DNA of 20,000 nt from Eimeria necatrix (Eukaryota > Apicomplexa > Conoidasida > Eucoccidiorida > Eimeriidae), in the NCBI RefSeq assembly GCF_000499385.1, contig NW_013654795.1, forward strand, positions 1 to 20,000, given 5' to 3'. Shown here piece by piece: positions 13,541 through 19,880 of this stretch. Below the pieces are notes generated by a model. The model saw nothing but the letters and a program-made list of their open reading frames with translations, had not been told where the DNA came from and did not search any database. The number at the start of each line of letters is the position of its first letter. Position 1 is the first letter of the stretch. Position numbers and translations under genes: made by a program.

Positions 13541-13598
13541 GAATATTTTAAATGCTTTAATAAGCATTTAAATGCTTATTAAAGCATTTAAAATATTC
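13541..13598. repeat. Perfect 58-bp palindrome without spacer
   Basis: The two 29-base arms, 13541-13569 (starting GAATATTTTAAATGC) and 13570-13598, are exact reverse complements with no loop. A second, imperfect complementarity flanks them (CTTTCTTCG near 13517-13525 and CGAAGAAAG near 13601-13609), which could extend a cruciform or RNA hairpin. It lies about 70 bp beyond the polymerase stop codon, on its 3' side, in convergent intergenic DNA. Because the arms are self-complementary, the same short peptide frame appears on both strands; that is not evidence of coding. Confidence 0.95.
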
Positions 13599-13668: not shown

Positions 13669-16600
13669 TCAGTCGTCGAGATCGCCCCAGCTCGGGCCCG
13701 CCTTCACGACCACGGCCAGCGGCACGGAAAGCGGCAGCGCCTTTTCCATTTCGCGTTTCAAAATGAATTTAACTCTTTCTTTTTCTTCGCCGCGGCACTC
13801 CACGATGATCTCGTCGTGCAGGGAAAGCAGCAGGCGGGGCCGCGCGCAGAAGTTGCTGAGCGGCGGAAGTTGAACACTCCGAAAGCCGGCCTTTAAGTCC
13901 CAAACCCGGGAAAATTGCAACTAAAACTCCAATTCAGTGGATATTTTCTGCTTAGAAAACCCCCAAGTTCCGCGGAAAGCCCCGCGGAAGCCCCGCTTTC
14001 CGCCCCGTTCAACTTCACTCACCTCCCCTGGAAAGCCCGCTGCACCCGCAGCATCGCCCGCTTTATTACGTCGCTGGCGCTCCCCTGAATTATATAATTC
14101 ACCGCCTGTCGCTGCAAAGAAGGACTTTCGCGCAACTCCGCACTCACGCGGCGACGGCGGCCTGTGCACCCACAAACCCTAAACCCTAAACCCTAAACCC
14201 TAAACCCTAACCCTAAACCCTAGCCCGAAACCCGGAACCCGGCACGTGGAAGCTTAAACTCCAGACCCAAAACCCCAAAGCTAAACCCTAAACCCAACCC
14301 TAAACCCAACCCTAAACCCTAAACCCTAAACCCTGAGCGCTGAAGCCAAACCCTAAACCCTAAACCCTAAACCCTAAACCCTAGCCTGCGGGAGCGACCT
14401 GCGAGGGTGGTGAGGAATCCGTGTTTCCTGGCGGCTAGAATGGCGTCTTTTGCGAATTTGGAAACTTCCGGAAAAGAAAAAGAAAACTGCTGGCGAACTT
14501 TTTGGGCTTCTTCGGGCCCGACGGAAAGCTGCTGGCAAATTGGCTGCAGCCCGCCGCCGTAGAGCAGCGCGAGGCAAACCACTTTGGCCTGCAGCAGCTT
14601 CGAAAGGACTTTTTATTTATTTTGTAATTTTATTTTATAATTTTAAACTTTTAAAATCCAAATTTAATGTTTTTATTTCACTGACACCGCCGCCCTGACA
14701 CTGCGCACTGGCCAGCGCAGCGACAGCTGAAAAGCAAATCGCCAGCCGACTCCAAAGATGCCAGAAACCCTACCGCCTTAACCCTAAACCCTAAACCCTA
14801 AACCCTAAACCCTAAACCCTAAACCCTAAACCCGGAAGGGGCAGTTAGTGCATCGTCAGCGCACCGAATTGCCCACAGCCAGAAACCAAACCCTGAACAC
14901 TAAGGCTTAAACCCTAAACCCCAAACCCTATACCCTAAACCCTAAACCCTAAACCCCAAACCCTAAACCCTAAACCCTAGAGCTGACGCTGTTTCTGAGT
15001 TGAGGCGTAACCTGGTCGACCTGGACTTTGGTGAATTCCGCTGCCATTTCTTTGTAGACGTCTTTTTCCCCTTTTGCAAAAATCCCACTCAGGCGTCCAG
15101 GGCCGCAAAAATGAGCCTACACAACAAAACCCTAAACCCTAAACCCTAAACCCTAAACCCGAATCCCTGAACCCCAAACCCTAAACCCTACATTGTGGTT
15201 CATGTAGGCGCACGGCTGCTCGGAAGGGAGCGAGTGTGTGTCCTTGGCAGCAAGGAGCAGAGATGAGCACATACCCGCAAGCCCCAAACCCTAAACCCTA
15301 AACCCTAAACCCTAAACCCTAAACCCTAAACCCTAGGGACAGGCGGCAGGCGCTGCGAGCCTGACCAAAACCCTCATTTCGATTTGCGCGAAGTCCGCGG
15401 AAACCAGAACCTCCGTTTTAGGGTTTGAGGGAACAAAAGCTGTTCTGCATCGCAGCTTCAGGTCCACCGCGGGGGCCCCCTGCGCTGGGGTGTACGTACA
15501 CCCCGCTGGGGTGTACGTACACCCCGCTGGGGTGTACGTACACCCCGCTGGGGTGTACGTACACCCCAAAGTCAAAAGAACTTCTTTCGGAACTGTTTGC
15601 AAATTGCAGTTGGAAGAAGATAAACGGCCTGTCACCGTTCGGGTTTGGTTCCACCGACAGTAAACCCTAGCCGTCGCAAACCGCAAACCCTAAACCCTAA
15701 ACCCTAAACCCTAAACCCCAAACCCTAAACCCTAGAGGCGGAGTGCTCAAGACGCACAAACGCGGGCCGCTGCCTTCTGGGCGAAGTGTCCAGGGCCTAG
15801 GACTCAGCGATCAGCTCTTAGGGTTTAGGGTTTAAAATTTAGGGTTTAGGGTTTAGGGTTTAGGGTTTACCTGGGCAACTCCGGCTGCTGAACTCGGTTC
15901 GCAGCCCAAGGGGTACTAAACCCTTCGGCTTTCTTCTTGGGGGCCTTTGGGGGGCCCCCAGGGGCCCCCGGGGGCACAAGAAAGGCCAGGGGCCCCACAG
16001 CAGGGGCCCTTTCTGCAGTGCTGTGCAGCTGTGGGGAAACAAGGCAAACCCTAAACCCTAAACCCTAAACCCTAAACCCTAAACCCTAAACCCTAAACGC
16101 TAAACCCTAAACGCTAAAGCCTGAATTTTGAGCGGTGAATTTAAAGGGCATTGAGGGCCATGCGCGAGCTCTCCTGGGCTGAAAGAAGGGCAAGAGGGTT
16201 TAGGGTTTAAGCTTCTGCTCATTTAGGGTTTAGGGTTTAGGGTTTACCGGGGTTAGGGGGGCCAAGAAAGTGGAGTAAAGCTTCGCTATTTGCCGATAGC
16301 GCTGCAGCAGCGGCACCACCGGGTGGCTGTCTCGCAGGCTCTGCAGCAGCAGGCCCCGCAGCAGCAAGGGTTTAGGGTTTAGGGTTTGAGAAGGAGGGTT
16401 TAGGGTTTAGAGAGCCCCTGGAACGGCCCTAGGGTTTAGGGTTTGGGCTCCTAGGGTTTCAGCTGCAGCGCACAGAGCCAAGGGTTTAGGGTTTACTTGG
16501 AGAACATTGTCATCAGTGCACTGCTGCTTCAAACCCTCCACTTGAAACCCTCCAGGGGGCCCCCCCGGGGGCCCCCCAGGGGGCCCCAGTTTGAGTTTGT

Positions 16601-18050
16601 TGTAAATGAGGTCTGCAACTTGTTTAGGAGAAGAGGGAGAAAAAGAAAAGCCAACAGCAGCGCAGCAAGCAGCAGCAAGGTGCTCGAGTTCTGCCTGAAG
16701 CACCCGCAAACCCTAAACCCTAAACCCTAAACCCTAAACCCTAGACGACAAACCCTAAACCCTAGACCCCAAACCCTAGACGACAAAACCTAAACCCTAA
16801 ACCGTAAGCCCTAGACGACAAACCCTAAGCCCTAAACCCTAAGCCCTAGACGACAAACCCTAAACCCTAAACCCTAAACTCTAGACGACAAACCCTAAAC
16901 CCTAAACCCTAAACCCTAAACCCTACCTGCAGCCTCTCCTTGTGGGGCGCCACAACAGACTCGTCGCAGGCAACGCCTGTGGCCTCCATTAGCGACAGCA
17001 GCAGCGCCACGGGGCCCTCCTGCTCCACCAAAACCCTGCGCGCAAACCCTAAACCCTAAACCCTAAACCCTAAACCCTAAACCCTAAACCCTATGTCGTG
17101 GGCCACTCAGAGGCTGAACAGAGAGTGGCGTCGAAGAGCCTTCTGGCTGGAAGCTGCTGCACCCGCGGCGAGGCACTGGCGCCCGCAAAACCCTGCCTAG
17201 GGTCAGGGTTTAGGGTTTAGGGTTTAGGGTTTAGGGTTTAGGGACCTGCATAAACCCTCAGAAAGCATGTGGGGCCCCAGCGCAGCAGCTACTGCTGCTG
17301 TGGCGGAATTGGCTTTGAGGCAATTCGCCCAAAGGAAACTCTCGGCAGCAGCAACCCCCGTGTCCAGCGGCGACAAACCCTCCTGAACGCAAACCCTAAA
17401 CCCTAAACCCTAAACCCTAAACCCTAAACCCTAAACCCTAAACCCTAGAGACCTGAGCCTTGAACACTGGCCTCCGGTTCAAAGCCCGAAAGCGGAAGCG
17501 CTCGCTCAGTACATCTGGTGCCTCGCCCTCCGCCCTCCAAAGCCTAAACCCTAAACCCTAAACCCTAAACCCTAAACCCTAAATCCGAGAGCGCACAAGG
17601 ATCTGCGGCAAGTTGAGTTTTGCTGCTGCAGTGTTTATTGCAGCAGCAGCAGCAGATATCTCAGGGTCTTCGGGGGCCCACAGCCACGCCATCAGAGAAA
17701 CATCGAAGAAGGCGACGGACCCAAGTGCTGCAAACCACAAACCCTAAACCCTAAACCCTAAACCCTAAACCCTAAACCCTAAACCCTAAAGCGCAGGCAG
17801 CCAAGCACGGACTGTGAGCCTCACGACGTGAAGGAGCCTTCTACCCGGCCGCAGGGGGAGCCAGCTCCGGAGAAAGGCCTAGGGTTAGGGTTTAGGGTTT
17901 AGGGTTTAGGGTTTAGGGTTTAGGGTTTACGTATTTCTGGGCGCTGCGCAAGAAGGGGCCTGAGGGCTTCTTGGGCGTTCCAAATCAGCAGCAGCCCTTT
18001 TGCTTTTGGTCTTTTGGCCCCCGAGACAAACAAGTCTTGCATTAAATCCC

Positions 18051-18100
<50 letters not shown>

Positions 18101-19880
18101 GCCTCCCCCTGCTGCTGCTGCTGCTGCTGCGCGAACTGGGCCAGGGGAACAACAAAGTGCTGCCACTGCGTCGGGGGGCCCCCCACGAGCAGCTTCAGGG
18201 CATCTTCAGGGTCCCACTGGGGGCCCCCCTGGCCCTCTGGGGGCCCCCCCAGACCCTGGGGGCCCCCCCCAGGGTCTGGGGGCCCCCCCTGGGTCTGGGG
18301 GCCCCCCCCAAGGTCTGGGGCCCCCTCCAGCCCGTGGGGGCCCCCCCCGAGGTCTGGGGGCCCCCCCTGGGGCTGGGGGGCCCCCCCGCGGCCTGGGGGC
18401 CCCCCGAGACCGGGGGGGGCCCCCCCAGGGCCTGGGGGCCCCCCAAGACCGTGGGGGCCCCCCCCAGGGCCTGGGGGCCCCCCGAGACCGGGGGGGGCCC
18501 CCCCAGGGTCTGGGGGGCCCCCCGCAGTACCCTTGGAAACCACAAGAGCCACGGGCTGGGGAAAACGGGCCCTGAGGGTTTTAATCTTAAAACATGCAGC
18601 TTCTAGTTTGCTGCTGCTGAGGCTGGAAGTGCTGCCGTTCTCCAGCAGCAAACTAAACACAAATGCTGCAGGGGGGCCCCCACAAATCCCAGCGGGGGCC
18701 CCACAAGGGGGGCCCCCCGCACCCCCAGGGGGGCCCCCCCCAGCACCTTCTCCCCCGCCAGCAGCCCCGGGGGCCCCAGGGCTTTGAGGGGCCCCTGGGG
18801 CCCCTCCACTCTGGGGGCCCCCCGGCGGCTGGGGGCCCCCCGGGGTCTGGGGGGCCCCCGCGGTCTGGGGGGCCCCCAGGGTCTGGGGGGCCCCCAGGGT
18901 CTGGGGGCCCCCCGGGGTCTGGGGGGCCCCCAGGGTCTGGGGGGCCCCCAGGGTCTGGGGGGCCCCCAGGGTCTGGGGGGCCCCCGGGGCCCCTAGAGTG
19001 GGGGGCCCCCCTGCTGCTGCGTTTGGAGTTAGTTCGAAGTTGGAGGCAGCAAATTCCGCAAACTGAGACGAAGTCCACAGGAAAGAAACGTCCTGCACGC
19101 CCCAAACCCCAAACCCTAAGCCCTAAACCCTAAACCCTAAACCCTAAACCCTAAACCCTAAACCCTAGTTAGCGAATCTGAGGCCCAGCCGCTGTGCAGT
19201 CGCTCCTGGGGCCTGAAACTTAATCACCAGCGCTTCCTCGCCGCATCCTCTGCACCCAAAACCCTAAACCCTAAACCCTAACCCTAAACCCTAAACCCTA
19301 AACCCTAAACCCTAAACCCTAGCGGAGAGCCCCTCACTTGCCGCTGCTCCCAAGCACTGCACAGGGCCTTCCAGGCCTTCACTGGGTCGAACAAGAGGGG
19401 CCCCTTTTGTTTCTTTTTTTCTCCACTTTTATTTATTTTCTTTTCTTTTCGCGCAGCTTTGGGGGCCCCCGGGGGCCCCTTGGGGGCCCCCGGGGGGCCC
19501 CCGGGGGCCCCCGGGGGGCCCCCCTGGGGGCCCCCCTCCCCGCTGTACCCTGCGTTGGGGGCCCCCCCTGCTGCTGCTGCTGGGGAGTCAGGGGGCCCCT
19601 CGGAGTCCTCGGAGAGGCTCAGGGGGGCCCCCGACTCTGCTGAAAAGGGGGCCCCTTCGGGAGTATCTACAGTGCCCAAGGGGGCCCCCGAGGAGGGGCT
19701 TAGCTGCTGCTGCTGCTGCTGCTGCTGCTGCGGGGCCCCAGGAGACCCAAAAGGGTACAGGGGGGCCCCCGGGGGCCCCTGGGGGCCCCCTGGAGGCCCC
19801 TGGGGGGCCCCTGGGGGCCCCCCCAAGGAGGCAGTGGAGGGGCTGCAGGCTGATTCGTTTGTGGCTGCAGGCGGGGAAGG

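What the first reader, a model, noticed from the sequence alone, without database searches (positions are those of the whole stretch)
14162..19337. A polymerase gene whose introns are built from telomere-like heptamers
Twelve of the 13 visible introns (all except none lacking heptamers outright, with 14589-14987 and 14162-14398 only partly filled) contain AAACCCT/TTTAGGG blocks, and no assigned exon does. Correct phase and conserved polymerase motifs across every junction make the intron calls strong. Interstitial telomere-like repeats are known in Eimeria; their near-systematic use as intron filling in one gene is the striking part. The repeats may be mobile or templated insertions, or tolerated because splicing removes them. 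A polymerase theta-like enzyme is itself associated in other organisms with templated insertions at breaks, so the coincidence invites a look at mechanism.
Basis: partly seen in the sequence, partly recalled or inferred. Interest (0 to 1): 0.88.

Follow-up and report, generated by a model that had tools for sequence, protein, structure and literature searches.

The report
Telomere repeats filling a gene's introns
In an Eimeria-like parasite genome a DNA-polymerase gene has short telomere-type repeat blocks in almost all the introns that could be modelled, a dense case of a repeat already known across such genomes, and the blocks tend to start and stop at fixed points of the repeat, as if each had been written by a telomerase-like enzyme.

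Summary
A family A DNA polymerase on the minus strand (13669-19092) splices from 14 modelled exons into one 1032-aa open frame. AAACCCT/AGGGTTT arrays lie in 12 of its 13 introns, cover 1010 of 2325 intron bases and no exon base. Seven of the 13 introns are also backed by homology, six of those with arrays.

Eimeria genomes carry this heptamer in repeat-rich bands outside coding sequence. Four units put stops in all six frames. A paralogue on another contig has none. Intron against intergenic density was not tested. Pol theta is not shown.

New here: array ends are phase- and base-locked, most often C[AAACCCT...CCCTA]G. Genome-wide, 3160 left edges of one phase against 261 of a control phase; 2345 right edges against 230. 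The neighbour is C or G in 83 of the first 100 rows at each edge, about one third each in controls. I read this as telomerase-like, templated insertion at breaks, tolerated in introns (0.55). No empty site was found, and splicing shapes part of the pattern.

The parts
13669..19092 (-). family A DNA polymerase gene, 14 exons modelled (3' end complete; 5' end not modelled)
   Evidence: 14 exons joined at GT-AG give one 1032-aa frame; Pfam DNA_pol_A 1.9e-87 for the 687-aa C-terminal part
13856..14022 (-). last intron, GTGAGT..CTCAG, no heptamer array; homology-backed
14162..14398 (-). intron, 127 of 237 bp in arrays (14174-14383, G-rich in sense); homology-backed
14589..14987 (-). intron, 115 of 399 bp in arrays (14765-14833, 14888-14979); homology-backed
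15117..15365 (-). intron, 99 of 249 bp in arrays (15127-15190, 15282-15335); homology-backed
15667..15870 (-). intron, 98 of 204 bp in arrays, G-rich and C-rich in sense; donor GTAAACCC is the array itself; homology-backed
16029..16247 (-). intron, 93 of 219 bp in arrays, both orientations; donor GTAAACCC; junction at the edge of the homology
16341..16496 (-). intron, 67 of 156 bp in C-rich-sense array pieces; donor GTAAACCC; homology-backed
16695..16926 (-). intron, 127 of 232 bp in arrays (35-bp higher-order unit, 16708-16925); donor GTAGGG runs into the array; homology-backed
17036..17106 (-). intron, 50 of 71 bp array; frame and splice sites only
17197..17245 (-). 49-bp intron that is nearly all array: 39 bp exact, the rest the donor GT and an imperfect last unit ending CCCTAG; frame and splice sites only
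17383..17452 (-). intron, 57 of 70 bp array; frame and splice sites only
17528..17596 (-). intron, 41 of 69 bp array (acceptor could be 6 bp further); frame and splice sites only
17728..17930 (-). intron with two arrays in opposite orientation, 97 of 203 bp; donor GTAAACCC; frame and splice sites only
19100..19167 (.). heptamer block 5' of the modelled exons
19254..19321 (.). heptamer block 5' of the modelled exons

Best explanation
The gene lies in a repeat-rich stretch of an Eimeria-like genome. The arrays are interstitial telomere-type repeats written into the DNA by a telomerase-like, template-directed process at breaks. The G-rich strand is most often started at one point of the template (seen: C|TAGGG) and ended at one point (seen: GGGTTT|G), so the typical insert is 7n+1 bp, C[AAACCCT...CCCTA]G. 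The broken ends are then rejoined (inferred). Four or more units put stops in all six frames, so in genes only inserts removed by splicing survive, and this gene keeps them in 12 of 13 modelled introns. C-rich-sense arrays can lie directly on the 5' splice site as GTAAACCC. Shown: gene model, arrays, locked ends, stops. Inferred: insertion, telomerase as the writer, breaks as the sites, survival by splicing.
For: 85 blocks in the window plus 23 fetched stretches: left start phase AAAC 40, right end phase CCTA 34; uniform phase rejected at 9e-17 and 8e-12. Simulated random-phase insertion gives 13-16% per phase against 47% and 40% seen. The base before the AAAC start is C in 33 of 40, the base after the CCTA end is G in 31 of 34. 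Without the window: 66 blocks, 29 and 22, with C in 24 of 29 and G in 22 of 22. Genome-wide: 3160 left edges of this phase against 261 of a control phase; 2345 right edges against 230. First 100 rows read: C 83, G 83, against about a third each in the controls. The commonest interior change is the same step as the stop, T7 to C, 12 of 23. Matches above cut-off to the TERT RNA-binding domain and to Ku, each to part of the profile. Precedents: P. falciparum telomere healing, first bases added GGGTT in 9 of 9 events (PMC5550746, passages); mammalian interstitial repeats inserted at breaks with in-register bases (PMC2246262, section 9).
Against: No empty site was found: 14 joined flanks gave 28 matches, 19 to the sites themselves and nine fragments of which none spans a junction, so insertion itself is not shown. 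No telomerase RNA was identified, and that this genome's telomere is TTTAGGG was not tested. More than half of the left edges and of the right edges (45 and 51 of 85) are in other phases, and of 31 perfect blocks 14 are 7n+1. In the window the edge type goes with sense orientation: AAAC left edges in 11 of 14 blocks that are G-rich in sense and 0 of 5 that are C-rich in sense, so splicing shapes part of the pattern. My attempt to orient blocks elsewhere failed its check (12 of 19 right). The lock is weaker in flanks under 50% GC: left 8 of 21, right 5 of 21.
Confidence: 0.55

Rival explanations
1. Ordinary microsatellite: the arrays grew by replication slippage from chance heptamers in the repeat-rich stretches and are seen only outside coding sequence because they break frames. 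Nothing is inserted.
For: Published view of heptamers as simple repeats outside coding frames. Short exact runs are the commonest class, 73 of 9-13 bp and 32 of two units. Single heptamers are in excess in array-bearing stretches, 84 against 9 for the reversed word.
Against: Slippage does not predict one favoured left phase, one favoured right phase, and C and G as neighbours, 10-12 fold over control phases genome-wide. The run spectrum does not fall steadily: 14, 17, 11 and 18 runs of 4, 5, 6 and 7 units.
Confidence: 0.25
2. Splicing selection: the ends look locked because arrays fill introns up to the splice signals, and only ends that keep the donor or acceptor survive.
For: All 5 modelled introns with a C-rich-sense array start at that array (GTAAACCC in 4, GTCCCT in 1; two of the five, 17930 and 17245, rest on frame alone), and no other intron of the 13 has a GTAAAC donor. 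The G|TAAACCC edge: 1484 matches with -2 not T and -1 not C, G at -1 in 73 of the first 100 rows. 411 matches of GTAAACCC..CCCTAG within 61 bp, some overlapping, some with other bases between.
Against: The commonest edges, C|TAGGG and GGGTTT|G in the G-rich sense, make neither GT nor a new AG at the junction and are found inside introns of this gene, apart from the splice sites.
Confidence: 0.12
3. A mobile element or introner carries the array and inserts at CpG.
For: The two flank bases read C and G in 15 of 21 blocks with both locked edges.
Against: No comparable preference beyond one base on either side. No target-site duplication of 2 bp or more above shuffles (7 of 2 bp and 1 of 3 bp seen in 84 blocks, 5.4 and 1.4 expected), though 1-bp repeats are in excess, 34 against 20.5.
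Confidence: 0.08

Closest known systems
AAACCCT/AGGGTTT heptamers of Eimeria repeat-rich (R) segments
   Same: same unit, together with CAG repeats, outside coding sequence (PMC4287421, PMC9131526, PMC3505466, PMC7564333; passages)
   Different: none of those passages reports fixed end phases or bases, or the intron-by-intron filling of one gene; Reid 2014 and Ling 2007 were not held
Interstitial telomeric sequences of mammals inserted at double-strand breaks
   Same: short telomere-type arrays at internal sites, with a non-random junction (PMC2246262, passages and section 9)
   Different: there empty orthologous sites show insertion; here none is at hand, and one start phase and one stop phase are favoured
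Telomere healing in Plasmodium falciparum
   Same: addition starts at one template position in all nine events (PMC5550746, passages)
   Different: there a new chromosome end forms; here the repeat is inside contigs and both ends are locked
Introner elements (recalled, no call)
   Same: many similar non-coding inserts that coincide with introns; one 49-bp intron here is nearly all array
   Different: no shared element sequence, no target-site duplication of 2 bp or more, many introns only partly filled

Membership tests
Eimeria R-segment heptamer repeats | AAACCCT/AGGGTTT tandem unit, abundant genome-wide | tested here: met
   44,244 21-mer starts, control 24
Eimeria R-segment heptamer repeats | banded distribution together with CAG repeats | tested here: inconclusive
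   uneven as expected: of 24 sequences 11 have no 21-mer and 13 have 1-71; array-rich ones also have CAG runs, but L010 and L019 have CAG runs without heptamers; stretches of 10 kb cannot show bands
Eimeria R-segment heptamer repeats | outside coding sequence | tested here: met
   0 array bp in the 14 modelled exons; one gene only
Interstitial telomeric sequence | unit equals the organism's own telomere repeat | not tested
   no telomere was read; published papers call it telomere-like
Interstitial telomeric sequence | empty orthologous or paralogous site shows insertion | tested here: inconclusive
   14 joined flanks, no match across a junction
Interstitial telomeric sequence | junction shows telomerase priming (fixed or in-register start) | tested here: met
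   G-strand start C|TAGGG in 31 of 85 blocks; end phase favoured tenfold over a control phase genome-wide
Introner-type mobile intron | target-site duplication | tested here: not met
   2 bp or longer not above shuffles
Introner-type mobile intron | inserts coincide with whole introns | tested here: inconclusive
   nearly all array in 1 of 13 introns; C-rich-sense array at the donor in 5 of 13; partly filled in most others
DNA polymerase family A | Pfam DNA_pol_A above cut-off with ordered pieces | tested here: met
   294 bits against cut-off 34.3; pieces in profile order
DNA polymerase theta | helicase domain with the polymerase domain | tested here: inconclusive
   POLQ_helical only on C216; 5000 of the 6827 bases held upstream of the window read N

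The most novel reading that the evidence does not exclude
Telomerase-written inserts have made introns in this lineage. An array put into an exon with its C-rich strand in sense supplies both a 5' splice site (G|TAAACCC) and a 3' splice site (CCCTA|G), so it can be spliced out at once; the 49-bp intron 17245-17197 and many of the 411 GTAAACCC..CCCTAG matches would be such events. (Lowered from 0.15 to 0.13 on checking: that 49-bp intron rests on open frame and splice sites, without homology.)
Probability: 0.13. Interest if true: 0.88.

Novelty: new variant of a known kind. Interest (0 to 1): 0.52.

Why it matters
Heptamer arrays of Eimeria have been described as simple repeats of unknown origin. 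Ends locked in phase and base at thousands of sites turn that into a testable statement: a template wrote them. If so, this genome is a large natural record of telomerase acting at internal breaks, it predicts bases around the telomerase RNA template (5'-C AAACCCUA G-3'), and it offers a route by which repair could supply intron sequence and splice sites.

Tried and rejected
Polymerase-theta coincidence: no helicase part seen with the window gene; pol I, theta and nu score alike; the best NCBIfam match is DNA polymerase I, below its cut-off.

Special attraction to this gene: a family A paralogue on C560 has gaps between its exon matches but no 14-mer in the 4.3 kb held. The window gene is still the densest stretch in my sample, 71 21-mers per 5150 bp against 40 in the next.

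Empty sites by joined flanks: 14 of the 21 blocks with both locked edges (the seven window blocks left out); no match across a junction. Target-site duplication: not above shuffles at 2 bp or more; 84 of 85 blocks used. Sense orientation of arrays elsewhere by codon usage: failed its check on the window, 12 of 19 right; 25 of 66 outside blocks called, no clear difference. Intron against intergenic density: not done, no annotation at hand. Rfam on the window at gathering scores: no match.

Limits of the sample: 24 sequences, 239,786 bases, of which 18,874 read N. Stretches were picked by contig number, not at random, and L001 is the rest of the window's contig. L024-L027 were left out of the block counts because they overlap the window or were fetched for the polymerase. 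Blocks without an exact double unit were dropped. The genome-wide edge patterns leave out edges next to one kind of variant unit, and base counts there use only the first 100 rows printed. The control phases were chosen after seeing the sample. Long arrays may be missing: contigs can break at them.

Full report
WHAT IS THERE. The window is bases 1-20000 of contig C143 of an unnamed 44.0 Mb genome. It looks like Eimeria or a close coccidian: it has CAG, GGGGCC and AAACCCT repeats. The species was not identified; the E. falciformis assembly is 43.7 Mb (PMC4287421, passages), and Cyclospora also has repeat-rich regions and CAG repeats (PMC4851813, passages; that text holds no word beginning with 'telomer' or 'heptamer'). 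On the minus strand a family A DNA polymerase is spread over many small exons. Six separate pieces match Pfam DNA_pol_A in profile order. Ten 3' exons joined at GT-AG give 512 aa in one frame. In the best alignment to a solved polymerase 7 of the 9 junctions lie inside aligned segments, one at an edge and one outside. With four more exons the frame is 1032 aa and there are 13 introns; the four added introns rest on frame and splice sites alone. The 5' end was not modelled; of 6827 bases held upstream of the window 5000 read N.

ARRAYS AND INTRONS. The 104 exact double heptamers of the window lie at 14174-19320. Arrays occupy 1010 of 2325 intron bases, in 12 of 13 introns, and no exon base. Of the seven homology-backed introns six carry arrays. 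One 49-bp intron, 17245-17197, is nearly all array: 39 bp exact, plus the donor GT and an imperfect last unit that ends in CCCTAG. All five introns that hold a C-rich-sense array start with that array, four as GTAAACCC and one as GTCCCT; the other eight introns have other donors. The ten 3' exons hold five single heptamers.

WHY MUCH OF IT IS EXPECTED. Four heptamer units contain stops in all three frames of each strand, so an exon cannot hold such an array. The E. [quoted passage not shown] E. tenella has repeat-rich regions with this heptamer and CAG (PMC3505466, PMC9131526, passages). My sample is uneven in the same way: 11 of 24 sequences without the 21-mer, 13 with 1 to 71. The first 14,173 bases of the window have no exact double heptamer. 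A family A paralogue on C560 has none in 4.3 kb. The window gene is the densest stretch of the sample (71 against 40 for the next), so it looks like an extreme case rather than a separate kind.

WHAT IS NEW: LOCKED ENDS. I delimited 85 blocks by local alignment to the endless repeat. Their ends are not random. Read on the C-rich strand, 40 of 85 start at AAACCC and 34 of 85 end at CCCTA, against 13-16% per phase when arrays are inserted in silico at random phase in the same kind of DNA. Before the AAACCC start stands C in 33 of 40; after the CCCTA end stands G in 31 of 34; positions further out show no comparable preference. Without the window the figures are 29 and 22 of 66 blocks, with C in 24 of 29 and G in 22 of 22. 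Whole-genome counts agree: 3160 left edges in this phase against 261 in a control phase, 2345 right edges against 230; all four patterns leave out edges next to one kind of variant unit. In the first 100 rows of each, C and G stand at 83 and 83, while the controls have about one third of each possible base. Blocks with both favoured phases are 7n+1 bp in 18 of 21; of all 31 perfect blocks 14 are.

MECHANISM. On the G-rich strand the common array reads C|TAGGGTTT...AGGGTTT|G. A favoured start and a favoured stop are what copying from a short template gives. The base before TA-GGG is a pyrimidine in 51 of 54 blocks that reach that point (31 C, 20 in-register T), as if it paired with a template G. 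The commonest interior variant, G instead of A after GGGTTT (T7 to C on the other strand, 12 of 23 single changes), is the same step as the stop. Parts of TERT and Ku domains are encoded. In P. falciparum telomere healing the first bases added were GGGTT in all nine events (PMC5550746, passages). In mammals, telomere repeats inserted at breaks show in-register bases at the break (PMC2246262, section 9). Hence my reading: telomerase or a telomerase-like enzyme wrote these inserts at breaks and the ends were rejoined. The enzyme, the breaks and the rejoining are inferred.

WHAT SPEAKS AGAINST. No empty site was found. In the window the AAAC left edge is seen in 11 of 14 blocks that are G-rich in sense and in 0 of 5 that are C-rich in sense, and the second edge class, G|TAAACCC (1484 matches; G in 73 of the first 100 rows), is a 5' splice site in four introns here. 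So splicing selects part of the pattern. More than half of the ends are in other phases. The lock is weaker in flanks under 50% GC. My attempt to orient arrays elsewhere was not reliable. One-base direct repeats around blocks are in excess (34 against 20.5), which I cannot explain.

SEARCHES FOR PRIOR REPORTS. The listings showed no title or abstract start on locked end phases of Eimeria heptamers or on introns made of telomere arrays. I opened passages of ten papers, and one section of one of them in full. Only open-licence papers are held; Reid 2014 and Ling 2007 are not, so an earlier report is possible.

VERDICT. Observation confirmed. The general phenomenon is known. The end grammar of the arrays is, as far as I could search, undescribed and deserves a species comparison.

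Noticed in passing
window 15483-15567: Four perfect copies of a 21-bp unit (CGCTGGGGTGTACGTACACCC) in frame inside the polymerase domain, between the NLQTVP stretch and motif A; the stretch also matches its own reverse complement.
   Followed up: partly
window 18217-18989: Long GGGGGCCCC-type repeats read through in frame in a polymerase exon as Gly/Pro-rich protein, with a CAG-type run at 18052-18099 coding poly-Ala.
   Followed up: no
window 13541-13598: Perfect 58-bp palindrome just 3' of the polymerase stop codon.
   Followed up: no
sampled loci, more than 40 bp from any double heptamer: Single heptamers are nine times commoner than the reversed word (84 against 9) in array-rich stretches and not in array-poor ones (27 against 22); decayed arrays may account for part.
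   Followed up: partly
L013 587-632 and 810-855: A tandem duplication with 223-bp spacing carries the same 46-bp array twice with the same left flank.
   Followed up: no
L013 1181-1216 and 1266-1301: Two arrays of equal length (36 bp) in opposite orientation 49 bp apart.
   Followed up: no
L014 6640-6730: Two arrays, 67 bp apart in register, that end AAA and are followed by a single inverted unit (TTAGGGTTT, TGAGGGTTT).
   Followed up: no
L023 1-60 (contig C500 start): A contig begins inside a 60-bp array, so the assembly may break at long arrays and their length spectrum may be cut.
   Followed up: no
window 16708-16925: Higher-order 35-bp unit of heptamers spaced by AGACGAC inside one intron.
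   Followed up: no
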